Positions 396 through 14,132 of a stretch of DNA of 30,602 nucleotides are shown here, one piece after another. The stretch spans positions 1-30,602 of the forward strand of contig MFYT01000091.1 of assembly GCA_001789205.1 (NCBI GenBank), in the 5' to 3' direction. The DNA is from Candidatus Raymondbacteria bacterium RIFOXYA2_FULL_49_16 (lineage in GTDB: Bacteria; Fibrobacterota; OXYB2-FULL-49-7; XYB2-FULL-49-35). The notes beneath the pieces were generated by a model. It was not told the DNA's origin. It saw only the letters and a list, made by a program, of their open reading frames with translations, and did not search any database. Each line of letters starts with the position of its first letter. Positions within the stretch are counted from its first letter, which is position 1. The position numbers and the translations under genes were made by a program.

Positions 396-797
396 ATGCC
401 GAAGAAGGAACAAACCGCCCAGATTCCCTTTGGAGAAAGGGTCAGGGCAATACGCAAAAAAAAGGGCATCACGCAGATGTCCCTTGCAGAGCGGTTGGAT
501 GTTACCCAGAGAGTGGTTTCATACTACGAGACCGAGCATGACAACCCATCGCTCGAACTGGTCGGTAAGATTGCCCGTGCGTTGGGCGTGACGCAGTTGC
601 AGCTCCTCAACTTCCGCGAAGAGCCGGTTCCCGAAGGGCCAACGCCCATACGGTCGCTGCAGCGGCATTTGAGTCTTCTGCCGGGCCTGCCCGTGGACGA
701 CCAGAAGTTTATCGCAAAAACCATAAACATGATTCTGGAAAGACACAAAATTCAGAACGGAGAATTTGCCCATGACATTGAAAGGTCACGTCGATAA
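396..797 (+). CDS. XRE-family HTH transcriptional regulator
   Basis: A 133-residue protein starting MPKKEQ. Residues about 11-68 form a classic Cro/C1-type helix-turn-helix: FGERVRAIRKKKGITQ, then SLAERLDVTQRVVSYYE, then PSLELVGKIARALGV. The remaining half is a short helical tail that may dimerise. Upstream ATGs at 357 and 375 stay in frame, but 357 lies inside the predicted -10 box, so 396 (about 30 nt after the expected transcription start) is preferred. No clear Shine-Dalgarno precedes any of them. The 3' end overlaps the antitoxin gene by 26 bp in another frame, suggesting translational coupling. It probably represses its own operon and the divergent primase-like gene through the 344-358 palindrome. 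Confidence 0.85.
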   Translation: MPKKEQTAQIPFGERVRAIRKKKGITQMSLAERLDVTQRVVSYYETEHDNPSLELVGKIARALGVTQLQLLNFREEPVPEGPTPIRSLQRHLSLLPGLPVDDQKFIAKTINMILERHKIQNGEFAHDIERSRR

Positions 798-972
798 CGG
801 CGTAATAATCCTCGACGAGCCCGTGAATCTGCCCAACGGGACCCGCGTAACTATCCAGTCCAAAGTTGGCAAGGTCAAGGACCCCTCCGGCATTGCCGGA
901 AGCTGGGTTGACGATCGGTCCGCCGAGGAAATCATCAAAGATATTTACGGCTCACGGCGTTCCAAGAGGTAA
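772..972 (+). CDS. VapB-like antitoxin (DUF104/AbrB-like)
   Basis: A 66-residue protein beginning MTLKGHVDNGVIILDEPVNL. This N-terminal strand pattern (a short sheet with VxLPxGxxVxI) is that of small antitoxins paired with PIN toxins. The C-terminal half (SAEEIIKDIYGSRR) is basic and probably wraps the toxin. ATG 772 is chosen because GGAGA at 759-763 sits 8 nt ahead; a TTG at 766 is an in-frame alternative. The gene starts inside the XRE gene and ends 2 nt before the toxin start, so the three are one transcript. Family placement rests on the N-terminal pattern and on gene order. Confidence 0.75.
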   Translation: MTLKGHVDNGVIILDEPVNLPNGTRVTIQSKVGKVKDPSGIAGSWVDDRSAEEIIKDIYGSRRSKR

Positions 973-974
973 CA

Positions 975-1373
975 GTGACGTATCTCCTGGACACGAATAT
1001 TCTCATTTACTGGACCAAAGGCGTCCCATCCGTTGTCGAGAACATTGTAAGCCGTGGCTTTAAAACGCTTGCGGCAAGTATCATCTCAAGAAGCGAACTC
1101 TATTACGGCGCTTACCGCTCCCATCATGTAGAAAAAAACCTGCAGACCATCAAGCATCTCTCGGAAGAGATACGATTCCTCCCGCTCAATGAAGATATCG
1201 AACGGCAATATGGCAAACTGAAAACCTCCTTACGGCGTGAAGCTAATCTCATTGATGACTTTGATATCCTGATCGCTGCAACGGCCATTATCAACGGCTG
1301 TATTCTGGTAACCAATAATGTGCAACATTTTTCAAGGATTGCGGAACTCAAGATTGAAAACTGGCTGACCTGA
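975..1373 (+). CDS. vapC: VapC-type PIN-domain ribonuclease toxin
   Basis: A 132-residue PIN-domain protein. The acidic metal-binding residues are visible: D6 in YLLDTNILIY, E41 in SRSELYYG, D94/D97 in LIDDFDILIAATA, and the TNN motif at 113-115 before HF. Length and motif spacing match the family, whose members cleave tRNA or rRNA when the antitoxin is lost. The start is GTG at 975, with AGAGG at 965-969 placed 5 nt upstream; the ATG-less start is supported because residue 6 must be the first catalytic Asp. It follows the antitoxin by 2 nt. All catalytic positions are intact, so the toxin is probably active; the RNA target cannot be told from sequence. Confidence 0.92.
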   Translation: MTYLLDTNILIYWTKGVPSVVENIVSRGFKTLAASIISRSELYYGAYRSHHVEKNLQTIKHLSEEIRFLPLNEDIERQYGKLKTSLRREANLIDDFDILIAATAIINGCILVTNNVQHFSRIAELKIENWLT

Positions 1374-2165
1374 TTCCCCCGCCCACCCTTCCGCAGCACT
1401 CCCCTGGCAAACGGCCGCCCCCTCGCCGCAGGTTTCCCCTTTGCATTCCCTTTCCTTGGCACTCCCTGGTCTTGGTAAGGGTGCCATATCTGTATCGCAA
1501 AGGGGCAACCAGCTCTGATAAAGGGGGCTACGGCTCACGTTCACCCCGCTCCTTTATGCGTCCGGCATCTGTCCAGTTCCAGCCGCAGTCGGCGCTCCCC
1601 TCTCGCTCTCCGTGCCTTATTGCATGCCTCGCCTGAAAGGCGGGCCAGGCACGCCCGGCCCGTGGGTCCCATATTCCCACGGCTAAAGGTGCGCACTTCC
1701 TCGCGCACTCCGGGCGTGGTGCAGCTCCCTTCCCACCGCCCCAGGGCTCCCATAACAAAAACCGGGACGGACGGAGCATTCTCAATCAATGCGGAGTCTG
1801 GACCGGTTTTTGTCTCCCATGCCGAAAACCATGCCAGCCTACGCTATTTTTATAATGCTCCGGCTGTCATGGTTTTCGCTTCCCCGAGCCAGACAATTGA
1901 ATCGCTGCGAGGTATGCTACGAGGCAGGACGCCGAGGACGTAGACCGTAAAGCGGCGGCGGATTCGCGCGTCCCCCTTAAGAGCCCCGGGAGCCGGACGA
2001 GCGACCGCCGGAACGATAGAGAGGCATTTCAATGGAGCAACGGACGGAAATACCTATTGACGCGATAATGGCAGAGGGTTGAGCGGGTCCGGGGCGGCAA
2101 AGGGGGAGTCAAATCAGAAACGGAATGGCGAAGGGCAAAGTGCGGGCTCTCAATCCATACAGTTT
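1374..2165. other. Gene-poor GC-rich stretch between VapC and the Rhs-tip module
   Basis: About 790 bp with no convincing gene. Several open frames exist on both strands (for example 1620-1943 plus and 1850-2032 minus), but they overlap one another, are rich in Arg, Pro and Gly, lack ribosome sites and match nothing I recognise. Base composition is clearly more GC-rich than the following 2166-3712. The middle holds two hairpins on a short direct repeat (listed separately). No transposase, tRNA or integrase remnant is visible. It could be a dispersed non-coding repeat or the decayed end of a mobile element. Confidence 0.6.
1747..1878. repeat. Two consecutive hairpins carrying a 67-bp-spaced direct repeat
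   Basis: Hairpin 1 has perfect 10-bp arms CAAAAACCGG (1756-1765) and CCGGTTTTTG (1803-1812). Hairpin 2 has 17-bp arms at 1823-1839 and 1862-1878 with one mismatch; the left arm is CGAAAACCATGCCAGCC and the loop is 22 nt. The left flank of each hairpin shares a motif, CTCCCAT-4nt-AAAACC, at 1747-1763 and 1814-1830 (14 of 17 identical, spaced 67 bp). There is no T-run after either hairpin, so these are not ordinary terminators. The class of element is unknown. Confidence 0.55.
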
Positions 2166-2876
2166 TCATTTTCTAATTGGAAATTGCATGGTTACATTCT
2201 TACCAGGATAATAAATTTCAAACTGTCCATTGCTGCTTGCGCAATATATGCATGCCAAACAATTCACCTTCTTACTATCGAGTAAATCCATCGCTAAAAA
2301 TAACCCCGCCATCGGTTGACCTGCTTCGTAAACAAAACTAGTCAGATCTGCCTCACGAATAAAGGATTCTAACGTCCTCTTATCCTTCGATAGAAGGTAA
2401 TACCCATTTAAAAAATTATTCGAGAATGACAGTAAAAACGTTATCTGCCCTTTTTCAAAAGAATATTCATTGACCACGTCATTGTTTTTCTTCCAGCTTC
2501 GGATTCTTTTATGCGTCACCTTATTGTTCGTTAGCCAGTTCTCTAATTCTTCGTGGTCTTTAAAACAAAATTTGAATCTATCCGACTCATAAAAAACGCT
2601 CTCTTCAACAAGTCGGCCATCCTGGTATCGTGAAAACGATTTGATTCTATTGTTCTTGTAATAGCTCGTTTCTTCTGAAATAGCCCCATTTCTTACAATC
2701 TTAAACCTTATGGAACCATCTGGGTAATACGAGAATGTACTGTCGTGGTCACTTTTTAAATTCGAGGAAAGCGCTTCTCGCAAATCATTTTCATATTTTT
2801 CAGATATTGGTTTCCCAGCCTGATCCGCAGACAGCGTAACACCTCCTGATATAAGTAATATGACCAATAACCTCAT
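2166..2876 (-). CDS. Exported MORN-like protein, probable immunity partner of the Rhs tip
   Basis: A 236-residue protein with an N-terminal signal peptide (MRLLVILLISGG, likely cleaved near LSA-DQ) and no lipobox. Residues about 47-97 carry strand repeats of the YYPDGSIRFK / YQDGRLVEESVFY kind, typical of MORN-variant 'YwqK-like' proteins that often occur as antitoxin or immunity proteins. The remainder is not recognised. Its ATG lies 5 bp after the stop of the Rhs-tip gene on the same strand, the standard place for an immunity gene. Export fits protection against a toxin delivered to the periplasm or acting at the envelope. Both genes are AT-richer than their neighbours, pointing to joint transfer. 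The immunity role is inferred from position. Confidence 0.6.
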   Translation of the reverse strand: MRLLVILLISGGVTLSADQAGKPISEKYENDLREALSSNLKSDHDSTFSYYPDGSIRFKIVRNGAISEETSYYKNNRIKSFSRYQDGRLVEESVFYESDRFKFCFKDHEELENWLTNNKVTHKRIRSWKKNNDVVNEYSFEKGQITFLLSFSNNFLNGYYLLSKDKRTLESFIREADLTSFVYEAGQPMAGLFLAMDLLDSKKVNCLACIYCASSNGQFEIYYPGKNVTMQFPIRK

Positions 2877-2881
2877 GAATT

Positions 2882-3712
2882 CTATCGCTCATCCCAATAC
2901 TGTTTTTCTCCCGTCACTGGATCGGTACCATAAAGTCTTCCACCAGTTTCAGGATCGCGTCCCGACTGCATCATGTTATTGGAATAATCACCCCAGTAGT
3001 CTGATTGCCGGAAAGCCTGATTTGAACTAAGGGTCGCTGCGGCATTTGCAAAACTACCAAAGCCACGTGCCACCCAATCTCCAAAAAAAGTTTTCATTCC
3101 TGAAAAATCATTAAGCTTTGTGTAAACATACGTTTCCATTCTCAAAGCAACAAATTGATTGCTAAAATATGCGGCCCTTCCTAACCAACTCATTCCGCTT
3201 TGAAATGCTTGCAACGATTGAAATCCATGTCCCCCTTCATGCCCAGTAGTATTTACCGTAGCTGCTGCTTCAATCTTTGCTCCACTCTTCGTCTGCGTAG
3301 TAATACCCGCGTAAATTTGTCCGTTACTTGTTTTCCCTTCCCATCCCGGAGAATGCAATGTCAGCTGAAGTTCAAACACCGGGTCATCAATTACTGATTG
3401 CCACCATGATTGAGCCACGGAACCCATCGCGTCCACTAATTTTGGTAAATTTTCTTGCGTATATTTAACTTCATCAGGAGTACCAATAGGAGTTACAAAC
3501 TTTCCGTTATTATCGGTATTGTTAAGAGGGTTATTCCAGCAATAAACAAACGGGCTCAGACCATTTGACACATCTGTGGGATTTGGATCGATTGATATCC
3601 ACCTGGCAATTTCGGGGTCATAGTATCTAGCGCCGAAATAATAGAAGTTTAAAAACAGGCTGATAGAGATATGAAAACTACCGTAAGTTATTGATTCTTC
3701 TCTTGATATCAT
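2882..3712 (-). CDS. Orphan Rhs tip: C-terminal end of the Rhs core plus putative zinc-metallopeptidase toxin domain
   Basis: A 276-residue frame. Residues 24-71 match the terminal Rhs core signature (YYFGARYYDPEIARWISIDP, then YCWNNPLNNTDNNGK). Everything upstream in a full Rhs protein (signal, YD repeats) is missing. Residues 72-276 are the variable tip, with HEGGH at 158-162, an HExxH zinc-site motif; E193 in RMETYVY is a possible third ligand, which would make it gluzincin-like. Polymorphic-toxin systems are known to use metallopeptidase tips. The first 22 residues (MISREESITYGS...) are read through the end of the TPR gene in another frame and are probably not part of any Rhs protein. There is no good ribosome site at 3712. 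It is best read as a displaced cassette or a reservoir of tip sequence, perhaps not expressed. Confidence 0.65.
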   Translation of the reverse strand: MISREESITYGSFHISISLFLNFYYFGARYYDPEIARWISIDPNPTDVSNGLSPFVYCWNNPLNNTDNNGKFVTPIGTPDEVKYTQENLPKLVDAMGSVAQSWWQSVIDDPVFELQLTLHSPGWEGKTSNGQIYAGITTQTKSGAKIEAAATVNTTGHEGGHGFQSLQAFQSGMSWLGRAAYFSNQFVALRMETYVYTKLNDFSGMKTFFGDWVARGFGSFANAAATLSSNQAFRQSDYWGDYSNNMMQSGRDPETGGRLYGTDPVTGEKQYWDER

Positions 3713-4418
3713 CAGCCTGCTGCGTGTCGGAGAGGGAGCGATAGAGAGCCTCCTTTAAAACAAGGCATTTCTTGATCCCTTGGACATGGTTTTTTATCCG
3801 ATAGAGCCGTTCACCTTCATCAGCCTGTTTGAGGGCATCCTTGGCCTCTCCCTGCGCTTTGAGTGCCCTAGCGGTGTAATATGCGACGTTTGCCAGGCCA
3901 AGCGGGTTTTTGCCTTTTTTGAGCTTTTTTTGAGCTTTCTCAAACAACGAGAGGGCCTCGTTGGGCTCGTTGCGGACAAGCTTCACACGGCCCCATCCAA
4001 TAAGCACAGAAGCGTATTCATACGCGGAAAGCAGGTCCTCGAGGTCTTCAACAGCATCTGCGGAAATATCAGTTGTCTCAGAGGGGAAGAAAAGCAGTTG
4101 TTCGTTAATGGCAGCAAGCGCGGCAAGCGACGGGTTTGCCTGGCTGGCCGCCTTTGCCAATCGAATATAACCCGCGGCAGAATCTAAATTGGCCAGACCA
4201 TAATAAACAGTGGCAAGATTGTTCAGACAAATTACTTCGCGTACATTGTCCGCTGAACGGAGCGCCTCGTTCAAATTTATCCTATACGAAGCCAAGGCGC
4301 CGCGCAGGTCGTTCTTAAAGTAGCAATCATAGCCCCGTTCGCCAGCATCAGAGCAGAATCCCGCTGATACAACGCAAAGGGCAATGGGCAAAATCGCATA
4401 AAAGGCGCGCAAACGCAT
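3678..4418 (-). CDS. Exported TPR-repeat protein at the end of the mla cluster
   Basis: A 246-residue protein with a signal peptide (MRLRAFYAILPIALCVVSAGFCSD). Helical tetratricopeptide-like pairs follow: YDCYFKNDLRGALASYRINL, NNLATVYYGLANLDSAAGYI, VAYYTARALKAQGEAKDAL. Such repeats usually bind a partner protein. The ATG is 1 nt after the mlaD stop, so the two genes are translationally coupled and this protein most likely serves the lipid transporter from the periplasm. The last 35 bp overlap the open frame of the Rhs-tip gene, marking the probable insertion boundary. No enzymatic motif is seen. Confidence 0.75.
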   Translation of the reverse strand: MRLRAFYAILPIALCVVSAGFCSDAGERGYDCYFKNDLRGALASYRINLNEALRSADNVREVICLNNLATVYYGLANLDSAAGYIRLAKAASQANPSLAALAAINEQLLFFPSETTDISADAVEDLEDLLSAYEYASVLIGWGRVKLVRNEPNEALSLFEKAQKKLKKGKNPLGLANVAYYTARALKAQGEAKDALKQADEGERLYRIKNHVQGIKKCLVLKEALYRSLSDTQQADDIKRRINNLR

Positions 4419-6132: not shown

Positions 6133-6913
6133 AGAATATAAGCGTAACTATTGTATTTACAAAGACCGAGAATATAATCGAGTTGACTACCGCTTTAATC
6201 GTGGCCTGGGGAACTTCCTGGAACGAATACCCGATACTCATGGCGTGGTGGCAGCTGACCACGGAGATAATGGAGCCAAAGAGGATGCATTTAATTGAGC
6301 TGATTACAATATCGATGGTGGAAAGCTCGGCAAGGATCATCTGAAGGAAGACCGAGAAGGGAAGCGACACGATGATGGCCGAGAAAAGGAACCCGCCCAA
6401 AATAGCGATTGTATCAAAAACAAACATCAGGCCAAGCATGGAGATGACAAATCCAAGGAGGGCGGGCATGACGCGCACATGGATAGGATCAATGCCCATG
6501 ACCTCGAGCGCGTCAAGTTCGTTGGCCACTTTCATGTTTCCCAGGTAGGTGGAGAGCGCGGCGCCGGACCGGCCAATGACAATGAACGCGGTGACCAGCG
6601 GACCTAGTTCACGGATAATACCGATAACCATTATTTTACCGAGGAATTCCCCAGCGCCGAACTTGGGCGCCAGTGTGGTTGATTGTATGATGATGATACT
6701 GCCCACCATGAGACCTATGATTGAGACCAAAGGCACTGCTTCCACACCTGTAAAGAGGACCTGGAACATGACGTCATTTTTCAGCGTTATCCTGTTTTTG
6801 CTCCAATTCTTGAAAATGGAACTTAACGCTTCGAAAAAGAGCACGGCAAGACCCATGATATATCCGGTAAGAATGAGCACTTTTGAGCCCAGAAACGATA
6901 GGACAGAGAGCAT
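6110..6913 (-). CDS. mlaE: MlaE-like ABC transporter permease
   Basis: A 267-residue integral membrane protein with five or so hydrophobic helices. The hallmark region of the MlaE/Ttg2B family is intact at about 120-165: GIIRELGPLVTAFIVIGRSG, then LGNMKVANELDALEVMGIDP. It forms the inner-membrane core of the Mla phospholipid transporter with MlaF and MlaD. AGGG lies a little upstream of the ATG, 16 bp after the preceding gene, and the 3' end overlaps mlaF by 23 bp. Length is usual for the family. The order E-F-D is the standard one. Confidence 0.93.
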   Translation of the reverse strand: MLSVLSFLGSKVLILTGYIMGLAVLFFEALSSIFKNWSKNRITLKNDVMFQVLFTGVEAVPLVSIIGLMVGSIIIIQSTTLAPKFGAGEFLGKIMVIGIIRELGPLVTAFIVIGRSGAALSTYLGNMKVANELDALEVMGIDPIHVRVMPALLGFVISMLGLMFVFDTIAILGGFLFSAIIVSLPFSVFLQMILAELSTIDIVISSIKCILFGSIISVVSCHHAMSIGYSFQEVPQATIKAVVNSIIFSVFVNTIVTLIFYANLLSG

Positions 6914-6929
6914 TGTGTCTTTTTCCCTG

Positions 6930-8522
6930 CTATTTTTCAGCGCCTGTGTTAAAAGGTTTCACGGCTGAAATGAGTGAATGTACCGCATGTATCGCGGCCG
7001 CTTCAGCCTCCCTGGCATAGAAGGTCCGGTTGGCCCGGTATCCTCCGGCAAAACGGGTTTCGGGGACAATGTACGAGGTTGACCTGTCCATATTACCAGC
7101 CACTAGAAGAGAGACGTCCGGGTAGAGTTCGGCTATCTTTTTTCCCGTTTCATAAAAATAATCTCCTTGCAGCCCAAGGAGAAGTGTTTCGTTCATTCTG
7201 AGCGCGCGCATGGCCAAGGGCCCGGGGAACAGGTTCGCGTGCGCATTGTTGTACTGGTAGAACGCGTCAAGGAAAAGATCTTGGATGGCGCGTTTTGTTT
7301 CAATGGCAACGCTGGTTTTCCTGACCTGTTCCAATTGGATTCTGTATTTCTGCAGGTCCATATACAGTTCTCCGGCCGGTTCTTGAAAGGCCGGTTTTAC
7401 CGGAAGCGAGAGGGGCATGGTGTAAAACCATCCTTTTCGGAGCCGTTCCCACGAGGCTTTTTTAATATATTGGACCAGGGTCGCGCTTATTCGCAGACCA
7501 AAGCTGTGCGCATTGGGATGGGAAAAATTGTCTATATAGGGGATGAGGTCAGCACTTGGAGCGCGCAGGAATAGAAAGGCGCCCCCAAGCTTTTTTTCGA
7601 GAAAAGTGGTTGCATGGAAAATGTAGTCCGAGGATATGTCTCCCGCGAGTTCAGAGGGCGGGGTGACGCAGGGCAGATAAGGGGAAAGTATGAAACCGCC
7701 AATGATGTTCCGTTCCCTGTTTCTGAAAACAACCAGAGGCGTTCTCAGTCCCTTAACCGGGGTTGTGGTGATCGAGAGAGGGGGGAGGGCGAAGGTTGAG
7801 TCTGAGAGCGAGGCGAACCATTTGTTGGCGCGTTCGGTTGCATCGTATTGTTTATTCATGACCTGAGGCCCGCAGAGCGGTGGAAGGTCCATGATTCCCG
7901 CTTCAAGCGAAACTTGGCCGTAATTTGCCAGGGGCATGCCGCTATCCGGAAAAATGACGGTGAATTCCGCTTCTACTGGAGCGGCAAGCGCACTGGCCAG
8001 GGCGGCTGCCGCGCTTTTGGCAAGATCTGTTGGCGAAAGCGTATAGTTGTTGACCGCAGCGGTTGAAAAGACCGCAACAAACTGCCGCTGCATGCCAAAA
8101 CCGTGTTCGAGTGTATCATATATCGCTTCGAGCTGTTGCCCGGTAATCTGTGGAATTTCAACGGAAATTAAGGCGGCCTTCTGTTTTTTATCTGAGAAGA
8201 CCAGGGTCTTGAGAAATATCCTGTTTATGATTTTTCTGCGGAAATTGGGCTTGTTTTTCTCTTCAGGAAGAGAAAAATCGGCAAAGGGTCTGAGCAGCGA
8301 ATCAATCCTGGTTTCTTCGATATTCCATTTAGGCTGATGTCTGACTGAAGAGGTGATTTCAACTGAAGCTGCGCCGATCAAGGGAGCTGAACTGAAAACC
8401 AAGGAAGTTATATCCGTTTGGGCCGCGTCGGGAATACCATCGCGGCTGCGTTTCCAGATATCAGCGACAATGGTGACAAAAACGGCAACCGCCAGAATAG
8501 CGGCCAAAATGAATTTCTGCAT
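6930..8522 (-). CDS. Exported protein resembling a neutral ceramidase, lacking the metal-binding histidines
   Basis: A 530-residue protein with an N-terminal hydrophobic anchor or signal (residues 4-20). Residues about 430-501 (ALRMNETLLLGLQGDYFYE, LLVAGNMDRSTSYIVP, then FAGGYRANRTF) resemble the end of the alkaline/neutral ceramidase fold, where the usual form is a PGE motif, a 'GxxNdxxgYiP' segment and 'GGYE'. Residues 105-161 also align in pattern, but the family's THTHSGP metal-binding site is replaced by STAAVNNYT (153-161). The protein is therefore a remote and probably inactive or re-purposed member. It is the gene just upstream of mlaE (16-bp gap), so a lipid-binding role is tempting. 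The resemblance is by eye only. Confidence 0.55.
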   Translation of the reverse strand: MQKFILAAILAVAVFVTIVADIWKRSRDGIPDAAQTDITSLVFSSAPLIGAASVEITSSVRHQPKWNIEETRIDSLLRPFADFSLPEEKNKPNFRRKIINRIFLKTLVFSDKKQKAALISVEIPQITGQQLEAIYDTLEHGFGMQRQFVAVFSTAAVNNYTLSPTDLAKSAAAALASALAAPVEAEFTVIFPDSGMPLANYGQVSLEAGIMDLPPLCGPQVMNKQYDATERANKWFASLSDSTFALPPLSITTTPVKGLRTPLVVFRNRERNIIGGFILSPYLPCVTPPSELAGDISSDYIFHATTFLEKKLGGAFLFLRAPSADLIPYIDNFSHPNAHSFGLRISATLVQYIKKASWERLRKGWFYTMPLSLPVKPAFQEPAGELYMDLQKYRIQLEQVRKTSVAIETKRAIQDLFLDAFYQYNNAHANLFPGPLAMRALRMNETLLLGLQGDYFYETGKKIAELYPDVSLLVAGNMDRSTSYIVPETRFAGGYRANRTFYAREAEAAAIHAVHSLISAVKPFNTGAEK

Positions 8523-8583
8523 ACGCTACAAGCTACCAAACGCTGATGCGCAGAAACGGGCTTTTTCTATCGTTGTATGTTCC

Positions 8584-9378
8584 TCAGAAATCGAATTCAT
8601 TTGTGCTGCCGCCTGATCCGGATGCCGGTGCAGGCGCTGGTGCAGGCTCCGCTGCCGGTGGCGGGGGTTCGGGCGCTGGCGCCGGAGCCGGAGCCGGAGT
8701 AGCGGGAGCCGATGATCCCCATTCATTATCGGACGACGATGCCGCAGGGGTTTGCGCAGGGGTTGAGTAATCGCTGGTTGAATTGCTGCTTCCCCAGTCT
8801 GATTTGACAGGAGGATAGCTTGATTCTGATCCCGAAGAAGTACCGTAGCCGCCGTAGCTGCTTTCAGACCCCATGGAGCCACCCACGTTATCGTTCGATT
8901 TATTGTCAATCCAGAAATTGTATCCCATATCGGCAACGACATTTTCGCCAAAATCTTTTGCGTCAGAAACACCGGAAAAATTGCCAATGCGCACGCGATA
9001 ATAAGTACCGGTTAGATCGCCGGTCGGGTTTTGCACTTCCGCGACATAGGCAGCGTATCCCTCTTCTGTGAACTTGGTCGCAAGACGGTTCGCGGCTTTT
9101 CTGGAAACAAAGACCGAAACCTGAACAACATATTTACCGTTGTCCGAGAAATTGGGTGTATAGCGCGACGCAAGAGCGCTCTTTTTTTCAGCAGCGGTCT
9201 CTTTTGCCGGTATAGCGGCGGCAGTGTCTTTAGTAGTGGCCGGGGCAACGGTTTCAATATCGCTCAGCATATCGTCAGCCGGAAGCTCTTCTTCCTCTTT
9301 TTTGCCGCCGCAATTGACCATAAATCCTGCTACAAGAAGAACAGCCAAGACTCTGAACGTTTTTATCAGATCAAACAT
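8584..9378 (-). CDS. SPOR-domain lipoprotein with long Pro/Ala-rich tail
   Basis: A 264-residue protein. Hydrophobic residues 8-22 precede C23 (FMVNCGG), a plausible but non-canonical lipobox with Asn before the Cys. A SPOR domain covers about 82-158 (KYVVQVSVFVSRKAANRLA, YYRVRIGNFSGVSDAKDF). Such domains bind septal peptidoglycan stripped of side peptides. Residues 165-264 are low-complexity: Ser/Gly/Tyr first, then Ala-Pro repeats, suited to spanning the cell wall. A strong ribosome site (AAGGAGG) and a good promoter (9423-9450) precede it, so it may start the mla transcript. The 61 bp to the next gene show no terminator. Confidence 0.8.
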   Translation of the reverse strand: MFDLIKTFRVLAVLLVAGFMVNCGGKKEEEELPADDMLSDIETVAPATTKDTAAAIPAKETAAEKKSALASRYTPNFSDNGKYVVQVSVFVSRKAANRLATKFTEEGYAAYVAEVQNPTGDLTGTYYRVRIGNFSGVSDAKDFGENVVADMGYNFWIDNKSNDNVGGSMGSESSYGGYGTSSGSESSYPPVKSDWGSSNSTSDYSTPAQTPAASSSDNEWGSSAPATPAPAPAPAPEPPPPAAEPAPAPAPASGSGGSTNEFDF

Positions 9379-12346: not shown

Positions 12347-13141
12347 TTATTTCCCGGTAAAATCAAAATTTCCAGTAGAAACCAGTGGAAAAATCTGTTG
12401 AAGATTATTAATAAACAAGTTCTCAATATCCTTTTCGGTATTTCCGGGAAACAATTGGGCTATTTTCTTAATTATCAGTGGAATATGACACGGCTCGTTT
12501 CTTTTTCCGCGAAAGGGGATGGGTGCCAGGTAGGGACAGTCAGTTTCGGGTAATAGGCGGTCGAGGGGGAGCGTGCAGATGGTTTCGGCAAGCACCGTCG
12601 CTCCCTTGAAGGTGATGATGCCGGTCACACCAATGTGGTATCCGGCGTCAATGATTTTGCGTGCAATGGCAGCCGTGCCGGTAAAACAGTGAAAGAGGGC
12701 GTTCCTGATGCCGTGATCGCGCAGCATCTGCAGGGCTTCGGATTCAGCTTCACGTGAATGCACGACAATAGGCAGATTGCGGCGGCGAGCCAGAGATAAA
12801 AGTGTGGAAAAGACTTTTTCCTGGGTTTTTCGGTCAGTAGAGTCGTAATGAAAGTCGAGTCCTGCTTCACCAATGGCCACTACCTTTTCCCTGTCGCACA
12901 GGGCATCGATTGCCTGAAGGTCGGTTTCTTTGGCTTTGCTTGCTTCGTGGGGATGAATGCCTATGGTTGCATGGACCATGGGAAAGGTGCAAGCAAGTTC
13001 GATAGATTGGCGGGATGTTTGGAGGTCGGTGCCAGAACAGATGATCATTTTGATGCCAACGGCGGCCGCTCTCTCTATGACGATGGGAAGGTCGTCGTTG
13101 AATTCAGGATAGAAAAGGTGGGAATGGGAATCAACACTCAC
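12347..13141 (-). CDS. tatD: TatD-family metal-dependent hydrolase (DNase-like)
   Basis: A 264-residue TIM-barrel hydrolase. Metal ligands are visible: H6 and H8 in DSHSHLF, E in VAIGEAGLDFHYD (about 93), H in PIVVHSREAE, H in ALFHCFTG, and D in LLPETDCPYLAP. The last motif is typical of TatD/YcfH, which are 3'-5' exonuclease-type or D-aminoacyl-tRNA-related enzymes. The start is GTG at 13141; it must lie there because the HxH motif is at residue 6. It follows the RodZ-like gene by 4 bp. All ligands are present, so it is probably active. Confidence 0.93.
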   Translation of the reverse strand: MSVDSHSHLFYPEFNDDLPIVIERAAAVGIKMIICSGTDLQTSRQSIELACTFPMVHATIGIHPHEASKAKETDLQAIDALCDREKVVAIGEAGLDFHYDSTDRKTQEKVFSTLLSLARRRNLPIVVHSREAESEALQMLRDHGIRNALFHCFTGTAAIARKIIDAGYHIGVTGIITFKGATVLAETICTLPLDRLLPETDCPYLAPIPFRGKRNEPCHIPLIIKKIAQLFPGNTEKDIENLFINNLQQIFPLVSTGNFDFTGK

Positions 13142-13145
13142 GTGG

Positions 13146-14132
13146 TCACTGCTTTACGCCAGAGAGTTCTTCCCATTCGGCCTGCGTAATATAGGCAAGG
13201 CCATTAGCGTCGATTTTTACATAGCGGCCTTTTGCCGGATCGAAGGAGGCCAAGGTGTTGTTAGTTGATAGAGTGACTTTCCCTGAATGCCGTATCCAAA
13301 AATAGAGGGGGTTGTCGGAGGCGAAGGTTTTGCGGTCGCCTTTGCGAAAAATGTTGAACCAGATGGTTTTGTTCCGCCATGCGTTTATATAGGAACTATC
13401 GTCCGTGCAGGCGATAGTAACTTTTATTGATCCCTGTTTTTCGTTCCGGAAACGGTTTTGCTGGGCCAAAACTTCGTCCTTTGGTTCCTGGGCCAGAGGT
13501 TCTTCCGGCTCGGGGGCTGGCTCAAGCGCGTTGTTTTCAGCTTGCGCGCCACTCTCGGGGGTTATGACAGGCGCCGCGGATGGTTCGGGTTCGGAAAGTG
13601 AGGCAGTATCAGCGGCCAGAGAGTCGGTTAAGGACTCGGCAGCGGGCATCTGTTTTTCTTTTTGAGCGAGAATAAGGAGCAGAAAAACAAGAAGCAGGAG
13701 GCTTATGATGATGGCAAGATGCCGCATGGGCTTCTGGTGTTGGGCGATTTCCGCCTTTTCAATCTCCCGGGTTTCTTTCTTGACTGGTTTTTCCTCAGGT
13801 TCGCATTCCGGACCAGCGGTTGATCCCTGCTGACGTACGAACCGGGAGTAGATATCATCAGGATTGAGCCCCAGGTATTTTGCCACGCTTTTTATGAAAA
13901 TTTTCTGGTAGGTCTGGCCCGGGATTTTATTGAATTCGTCTTTTTCAATGGCGGCAATGTATTCGGCGCTGAGGCGCGTGTCCGCGGCCATCTTGTGCAC
14001 TTCGATACGGCTGCTGATCCTTATTTTCCGGAGATATTGGCCCAGCGTGTCCTGATCGATGGAGATGCCTTCAGCTGGATCGCCTTCGGTATGGCGCTCG
14101 CTGAGACCGTGGGATGAATTGTGTATGTCCAT
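13146..14132 (-). CDS. RodZ-like HTH / membrane protein
   Basis: A 328-residue protein with the RodZ layout. A cytoplasmic helix-turn-helix of the XRE type lies at about 28-98 (LGQYLRKIRISSRIEVHKMA, LSAEYIAAIEKDEF, YQKIFIKSVAKYLGL). One transmembrane helix follows at about 138-158 (AIIISLLLLVFLLLILA), then a Pro/Glu/Ala-rich linker and a beta-rich periplasmic domain of the DUF4115 type (KVTIACTDDSSYINAWRN). RodZ links MreB to the cell-wall elongation machinery. The start at 14132 overlaps the 3' end of maf by 62 bp; AGGA lies about 14 nt ahead. A later non-ATG start is possible, as the first 25 residues are not conserved-looking. Confidence 0.85.
   Translation of the reverse strand: MDIHNSSHGLSERHTEGDPAEGISIDQDTLGQYLRKIRISSRIEVHKMAADTRLSAEYIAAIEKDEFNKIPGQTYQKIFIKSVAKYLGLNPDDIYSRFVRQQGSTAGPECEPEEKPVKKETREIEKAEIAQHQKPMRHLAIIISLLLLVFLLLILAQKEKQMPAAESLTDSLAADTASLSEPEPSAAPVITPESGAQAENNALEPAPEPEEPLAQEPKDEVLAQQNRFRNEKQGSIKVTIACTDDSSYINAWRNKTIWFNIFRKGDRKTFASDNPLYFWIRHSGKVTLSTNNTLASFDPAKGRYVKIDANGLAYITQAEWEELSGVKQ

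What the first reader, a model, noticed from the sequence alone, without database searches (positions are those of the whole stretch)
2166..3712. Orphan Rhs tip with HEGGH metallopeptidase motif and an exported MORN-like immunity candidate
Only the last piece of the Rhs core remains, fused in frame to leader codons from the neighbouring TPR gene, and the variable domain carries an HExxH zinc site. The next gene, 5 bp away, is exported and MORN-like. Polymorphic-toxin theory (Rhs tip exchange) explains the layout. A metallopeptidase tip matched with an exported MORN-type immunity protein is an uncommon pair. The pair is AT-richer than its flanks.
Basis: partly seen in the sequence, partly recalled or inferred. 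Interest (0 to 1): 0.75.

Follow-up and report, generated by a model that had tools for sequence, protein, structure and literature searches.

The report
Stranded Rhs toxin tip with partner
A bacterial genome carries a cut-off Rhs toxin tip and its likely exported antidote behind an unrelated operon; the pair is of a known sort, but four such pairs scattered through this genome start at the same 22-base seam and lie beside the same rare palindromes, which hints at a movable cassette.

Summary
ORF 2882-3712(-) is an orphan Rhs tip: only the last ~50 residues of the Rhs core (TIGR03696, E=3e-14) plus a 205-aa domain with HEGGHGFQ. A 236-aa gene follows 5 bp later, with a signal-peptide-like N-terminus. 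The pair is 40% GC against 49-53% in its flanks. The tip is not fused to the TPR protein: it starts out of frame inside that gene's last 35 bp and hairpin. The MORN label is not supported. No relative of the tip was found, and single-sequence models are too weak to show a zinc fold, so "metallopeptidase" rests on the motif. The surroundings say more. This genome has five Rhs core ends, no detectable YD repeats and no TssC. Four tips (C91 = window, C23, C40, C68) share an exact 22-bp seam (GARYYDP) that recurs once elsewhere in 84,980 genomes, while the codons beyond it diverge. Downstream lie low-copy palindromes (R1, R2) found next to these four tips and at one other locus. All five pairs are AT-rich with exported or membrane partners. 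Best reading: a dissociated Rhs tip-immunity cassette, probably silent here, encoding an envelope-acting toxin. Site-directed movement is suggested, not shown.

The parts
3503..3649 (-). End of the Rhs core (residues 22-70 of the tip ORF, YYFGARYYDPEIARW...NNTDNNG)
   Evidence: TIGR03696 E=3.4e-14; PHROG 10385, match starts at profile position 2046
3615..3636 (-). 22-bp seam TCGGCGCTAGATACTATGACCC ([F/I]GARYYDP), identical at the start of four tips of this genome
   Evidence: exact on C23, C40, C68, C91 only; one other exact match in 84,980 species genomes, in an ordinary rhs gene; none in viral contigs
2882..3712 (-). Orphan Rhs tip ORF, 276 aa
2885..3499 (-). Variable tip domain (residues 72-276), putative zincin-type toxin domain
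   Evidence: motif only; no Pfam, PDB, plasmid, phage, viral or phylum relative
3227..3241 (-). HEGGH (residues 158-162), followed by GFQ: HExxHxxQ
   Evidence: sequence; shuffle frequency 0.0016 for HExxH
3134..3136 (-). E193 (ALRMETYVY), possible third zinc ligand
   Evidence: inference from its position 35 residues after the first His; not tested
2166..2876 (-). Candidate immunity gene, 236 aa, exported; 5 bp after the tip stop
   Evidence: no significant family
2826..2876 (-). Signal-peptide-like N-terminus MRLLVILLISGGVTLSA
   Evidence: hydrophobicity; cleavage site inferred
3678..4418 (-). TPR-repeat gene, last gene of an MlaD/ABC-type operon; upstream flank of the tip
   Evidence: TPR_12 E=2.7e-6 and MlaD E=5e-16 for the next gene
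3651..3721 (-). Hairpin over the TPR gene's stop codon followed by a T-run (3651-3655); Rhs homology starts a few bases later
   Evidence: fold -22.1 kcal/mol, z=-3.3; not picked by the simple terminator scan, whose loop limit is 8
1751..1884 (-). 134-bp repeat, 95% identical to the segment downstream of the C23 tip pair; includes palindrome R2
1823..1878 (-). Palindrome R2 (GCGAAAACCATG...CATGGTTTTCGGC), also near C23, C68 and on C9
   Evidence: fold z=-5.7

Best explanation
This is a dissociated (orphan) Rhs tip-immunity cassette. At some time a tip with its immunity gene recombined at the most conserved box of the Rhs core (GARYYDP) and came to rest just behind the hairpin that ends an MlaD/TPR operon. 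Shown: the core remnant, the gene order, the low GC, the shared seam and the shared 3' palindromes. Inferred: the tip domain is a zincin-like peptidase (HExxHxxQ plus a later Glu) that would act in the envelope of a rival cell once rejoined to an Rhs core, and the exported partner neutralises it in the periplasm. Here it is probably silent or barely expressed, having no core, no export signal and a hairpin with a T-run upstream; it would serve as a reservoir for tip exchange.
For: TIGR03696 on residues 22-70. Five Rhs core ends in the genome but no YD repeat, with the control ringing in 8 of 14 genomes. All five pairs are 36-40% GC against 47-53% around them, and all five partners begin with a signal-like or membrane segment. 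Another tip carries peptidoglycan-hydrolase-like features: C40 has DCSG...GHVGVY and a weak hit to a phage minor tail protein family. Exact 22-bp seam in four tips, 39 of 42 seam codon comparisons identical against 51 of 112 downstream. Orphan tips as silent displaced fragments, usable after recombination, are established (PMC2935791, PMC3967940). HExxHxxQ-E is the signature of toxin-associated metallopeptidases and Tox-MPTase tips sit on RHS repeats (PMC3482391). HExxH toxins with envelope immunity exist (PMC6899460).
Against: No relative of the tip and no specific relative of the partner was found, so nothing shows that they travel together elsewhere. The structure model is unusable (pLDDT 43; best Foldseek hits are Rib domains at E=0.06). 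Known orphan tips lie in arrays behind a full-length rhs gene; none is seen here. The genome lacks TssC, so a T6SS delivery route is not evident.
Confidence: 0.66

Rival explanations
1. Site-directed tip cassettes: tip, immunity gene and palindromic 3' end form a unit that is inserted or swapped at the 22-bp seam by a recombinase or by short-homology recombination, so that the tips are scattered singly rather than in an array.
For: Same 22-bp start in four places with three different upstream sequences. In all four, Rhs homology starts at PHROG 10385 position 2044-2047. R1 occurs in only five places in the genome (C23, C68 twice, C40, C9) and R2 in four (C91, C23, C68, C9); four of the five loci lie within about 300 bp of a seam tip's partner. 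The window copy of the R2 segment is 95% identical to that of C23 over 134 bp.
Against: No recombinase was identified or searched for. R1 is missing in the window and R2 on C40. C9 has R1 and R2 without a tip. C40 and C68 are contig ends, so their upstream context is unknown. An insertion boundary was not proved by an empty site.
Confidence: 0.2
2. Plain decay: remnants of several former full-length rhs genes whose 5' parts were deleted, with no present role.
For: No core detected; C29 keeps more of the core but is truncated too; the window leader is out-of-frame TPR sequence.
Against: Both ORFs are intact over 276 and 236 codons and stay a toxin-immunity pair; breakpoints coincide at the seam rather than being scattered; synonymous identity is confined to the seam.
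Confidence: 0.2
3. Stand-alone TPR-coupled toxin: the tip is translated from its own ATG by coupling to the TPR gene and used without an Rhs core.
For: The ATG overlaps the TPR gene by 35 bp, a normal layout for coupled genes, and the ORF is intact.
Against: No export signal on the tip; the start codon lies in the 5' arm of a stable hairpin; the core remnant has no known use alone.
Confidence: 0.08

Closest known systems
Dissociated / orphan rhs-CT-rhsI modules (Enterobacteriaceae; PMC2935791, PMC3967940)
   Same: Core remnant plus non-homologous tip plus immunity gene, low GC, usually no translation start or export of its own
   [quoted passage not shown] Typhimurium LT2); here they are single, scattered, share only 22-30 bp of near-identical core DNA, and no core is in the assembly
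Tox-MPTase1-5, HopH1-type and PVC-metallopeptidase toxin domains (PMC3482391)
   Same: HExxH (HExxHxxQ as in PVC-metallopeptidase) in a C-terminal tip after RHS sequence
   Different: No profile match; fold not shown
Tpe1 / VgrG2b C-ter with Tpi1 / PA0261 (PMC6899460)
   Same: HExxH toxin acting in the periplasm, envelope-exposed immunity protein next door
   Different: T6SS effectors, VgrG-borne in the case of VgrG2b; no Rhs; no sequence similarity found in the PDB sequence search
MORN_2 repeat proteins (PF07661)
   Same: Partner residues ~47-110 have YYPDGS/YYKNNR-type repeats
   Different: Below Pfam cut-off; the similar proteins in the phylum are generic and not next to Rhs tips

Membership tests
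Orphan (dissociated) Rhs tip-immunity module | Short 3' fragment of the conserved Rhs core in frame with a variable tip | tested here: met
   TIGR03696 residues 22-70, E=3.4e-14
Orphan (dissociated) Rhs tip-immunity module | Adjacent downstream immunity gene specific to the tip | tested here: inconclusive
   Gene 5 bp downstream, exported; cognate function untested
Orphan (dissociated) Rhs tip-immunity module | Located downstream of a full-length rhs gene with matching core (true of the described arrays, not of stand-alone cassettes) | tested here: not met
   Upstream genes are TPR and MlaD; no YD repeats in the assembly. A core could be missing from the assembly
Rhs full-length toxin | YD-repeat shell | tested here: not met
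   YD_repeat_2x; TEN_YD-shell; weak control
Zincin metallopeptidase | HExxH motif | tested here: met
   residues 158-162
Zincin metallopeptidase | Zincin fold with third ligand | tested here: inconclusive
   model pLDDT 43, Foldseek uninformative; the order helix-strands-HExxH helix-helix is compatible but not evidence
Zincin metallopeptidase | Profile or sequence match to a known family | tested here: not met
MORN-repeat protein (MORN_2, PF07661) | Match above the curated cut-off | tested here: not met
   13.5 bits against 29.6
Integron gene cassette | attC with RYYYAAC...GTTRRRY ends and an integron integrase | tested here: inconclusive
   R1 ends read GTTTACATAA...TTATGTAAAC by eye, not attC core sites; integrase not searched

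The most novel reading that the evidence does not exclude
Rhs tips in this lineage move as discrete cassettes with fixed ends, a 22-bp seam inside the GARYYDP codons at the 5' end and a palindromic element at the 3' end, and can settle singly at gene ends away from any rhs core. That would be a physical form of the mobile tip pool predicted in 2009 (PMC2935791).
Probability: 0.2. Interest if true: 0.75.

Novelty: new variant of a known kind. Interest (0 to 1): 0.45.

Why it matters
How Rhs tips move between genes is open: the displacement model needs a mobile, core-tipped intermediate, proposed as an episomal circle, and asks how it would be generated (PMC2935791). A genome with four scattered tip pairs that share a 22-bp start and low-copy palindromic 3' neighbours offers defined ends to test for excision, circles or exchange. 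The tip itself would be a new toxin family with an exported partner.

Tried and rejected
Relatives of the tip: genome contigs, viral contigs, plasmids, phages, 60 and 167 genomes of the phylum. The only weak hit (G022, E=8e-4) is antisense to rpoB and spurious. Relatives of the partner: four weak phylum hits; the three whose surroundings I read are generic MORN-repeat proteins in other contexts; none in plasmids. Structure: both single-sequence models are poor. PF25023 as a core probe is insensitive (its control misses E. coli), so YD_repeat_2x was used. BLAST of the C91 and C68 tips shows no homology. R1/R2 as canonical integron attC: end motifs do not fit by eye. Rfam found nothing convincing in the window's 3' segment; the group II intron is on C40 only. 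PADLOC: no hit.

Full report
What is there. The window is a complete contig (C91, 30,602 bp) of a 5.43 Mb genome in 112 contigs; no relative closer than phylum was listed. On the minus strand an operon with an MlaD protein (E=5e-16) ends in a TPR gene (3678-4418). The tip ORF (2882-3712, 276 aa) starts inside the last 35 bp of that gene in another frame. A hairpin spans the TPR stop codon and is followed by a T-run at 3651-3655 (-22.1 kcal/mol, z -3.3). Rhs homology begins a few bases later. So the 'leader' is not TPR protein; it is out-of-frame DNA that happens to be open. Residues 22-70 are the end of the Rhs core (TIGR03696 E=3.4e-14; YenC2 and TccC chains in the PDB at the same residues). 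An ordinary rhs gene continues upstream as FTGKELDKETGLYYFGARYYDP, as in the Psychrobacter locus that carries the same 22-mer; in the window that part is absent.

The tip domain. Residues 72-276 carry HEGGHGFQ at 158-165 and a Glu at 193. HExxH arises in 0.16% of shuffles of this domain and HExxHxxQ in 0.011%. HExxHxxQ-E is the published signature of PVC-type metallopeptidases, and five Tox-MPTase families with HExxH are known as RHS tips (PMC3482391). No profile, PDB sequence, plasmid, phage, viral contig or phylum genome gave a relative. The single-sequence model has pLDDT 43 and its Foldseek hits are meaningless. The enzyme class therefore rests on the motif and on position. I infer a zincin acting in the envelope.

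The partner. The gene at 2166-2876 follows after 5 bp, has a signal-peptide-like start, and matches no family above cut-off; MORN_2 reaches 13.5 bits against 29.6. Phylum hits are generic MORN-repeat proteins in unrelated contexts. I keep 'exported immunity candidate' and drop 'MORN-type'.

The rest of the genome. Only five Rhs core ends were found: C91, C23, C40, C68 and C29. YD repeats are not found at all, with the same search ringing in 8 of 14 control genomes, and TssC is not found. C40 and C68 begin or end inside the same 93-bp leader, so an upstream repeat is missing from the assembly and a lost core cannot be excluded. All five tip-partner pairs are 36-40% GC in 47-53% surroundings, and all five partners start with a signal-like or membrane segment (for C23 the strongest segment lies at residue 60, with a weaker one at the start). 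Two other tips look like cell-wall hydrolases: C40 has DCSG and GHVGVY with a weak hit to a phage minor tail protein family (E=0.011), and C29 has a CNYA...HGHVA pattern (by eye). That makes an envelope target for the set likely, as an inference.

The seam. The sequence TCGGCGCTAGATACTATGACCC is identical at the start of four tips (C91, C40, C68, C23). In 84,980 species genomes it occurs exactly once more, and in viral contigs never. Among these tips 39 of 42 same-residue codon comparisons are identical inside the seam against 51 of 112 in the 40 codons after it (Fisher p=3e-8, comparisons not independent; with three independent leaders 19/21 against 27/58, p=6e-4). Upstream sequences are of three different kinds. 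Rhs homology starts at the same profile position (2044-2047 of PHROG 10385) in all four, with the caveat that only about 20 residues upstream are visible on C40 and C68. The likely reading is that recombination joined each tip at this box.

The 3' side. A 134-bp segment of the window (1751-1884) that includes the palindrome R2 is 95% identical to the segment behind the C23 pair; R2 also lies behind C68 and on C9. A second palindrome R1 lies behind C23, C68 (twice), C40 and on C9; a covariance model finds it nowhere else in the genome (150 of 799 first-look candidates were scored). Four of the five loci with R1 or R2 are thus within about 300 bp of a seam tip's partner gene. On C40 a group II intron (RT E=8.5e-41 with maturase domain; Rfam D1-D4 and Intron_gpII) sits inside R1: the flanks join to GTTACA|TAATCTGCGC, matching the R1 sequence of C23 and C68. 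PIN-domain genes follow at several of these places. Shared sequence on both sides of different tips suggests exchange of tip-immunity units between these sites. It does not prove a dedicated mechanism.

Comparison. Orphan tips are well known: displaced tips in arrays behind rhs genes (PMC2935791), silent until recombination with the main gene (PMC3967940), and stand-alone cassettes of toxin plus immunity gene (PMC3482391). What differs here is scatter, the very short shared core DNA, the 3' palindromes, and the lack of a visible core. The pairing of an HExxH toxin with an exported immunity protein has a tested precedent in VgrG2b C-ter/PA0261 and Tpe1/Tpi1 (PMC6899460), so it is not itself the surprising part.

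Verdict. An orphan Rhs tip-immunity cassette of a new tip family: a new variant of a known kind, moderate interest. The strongest lead is the common seam and 3' palindromes across four loci.

Noticed in passing
L027 (C40) 1662-3559: Group II intron with RT/maturase inserted exactly inside the arm of palindrome R1; exons join to GTTACA|TAATCTGCGC.
   Followed up: yes
L028 (C68) 12858-13700: The C68 tip has AFELGNVQNQM, which looks like an HELGH-type motif with both His lost; no homology to the window tip by BLAST.
   Followed up: partly
L030 (C29) 7346-8923: Rhs end fused to a choice-of-anchor-like stretch (SDGAPDIGAYE) rather than YD repeats, N-terminus apparently broken; tip looks like a cysteine amidase (by eye).
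   Followed up: no
window 766-1373: AF2212-like/PIN toxin-antitoxin pair next to the 3' repeat; PIN-domain genes also lie near the repeats on C68 and near the C29 tip, and a PIN-like gene without a Pfam hit on C40 and (apparently frameshifted) on C9.
   Followed up: partly
L038 (C9) 6450-7340: R1 and R2 together with a stretch 80% identical to window 1433-1722, but no Rhs tip: perhaps an empty or decayed site.
   Followed up: partly
window 1399-1722: GC-rich noncoding stretch, about 80% identical to a part of C9, with misleading ORFs on both strands.
   Followed up: no
L027 1-93 and L028 13617-13709: Two contigs end in the same 93-bp leader, so a repeated sequence upstream of two tips is missing from the assembly.
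   Followed up: partly
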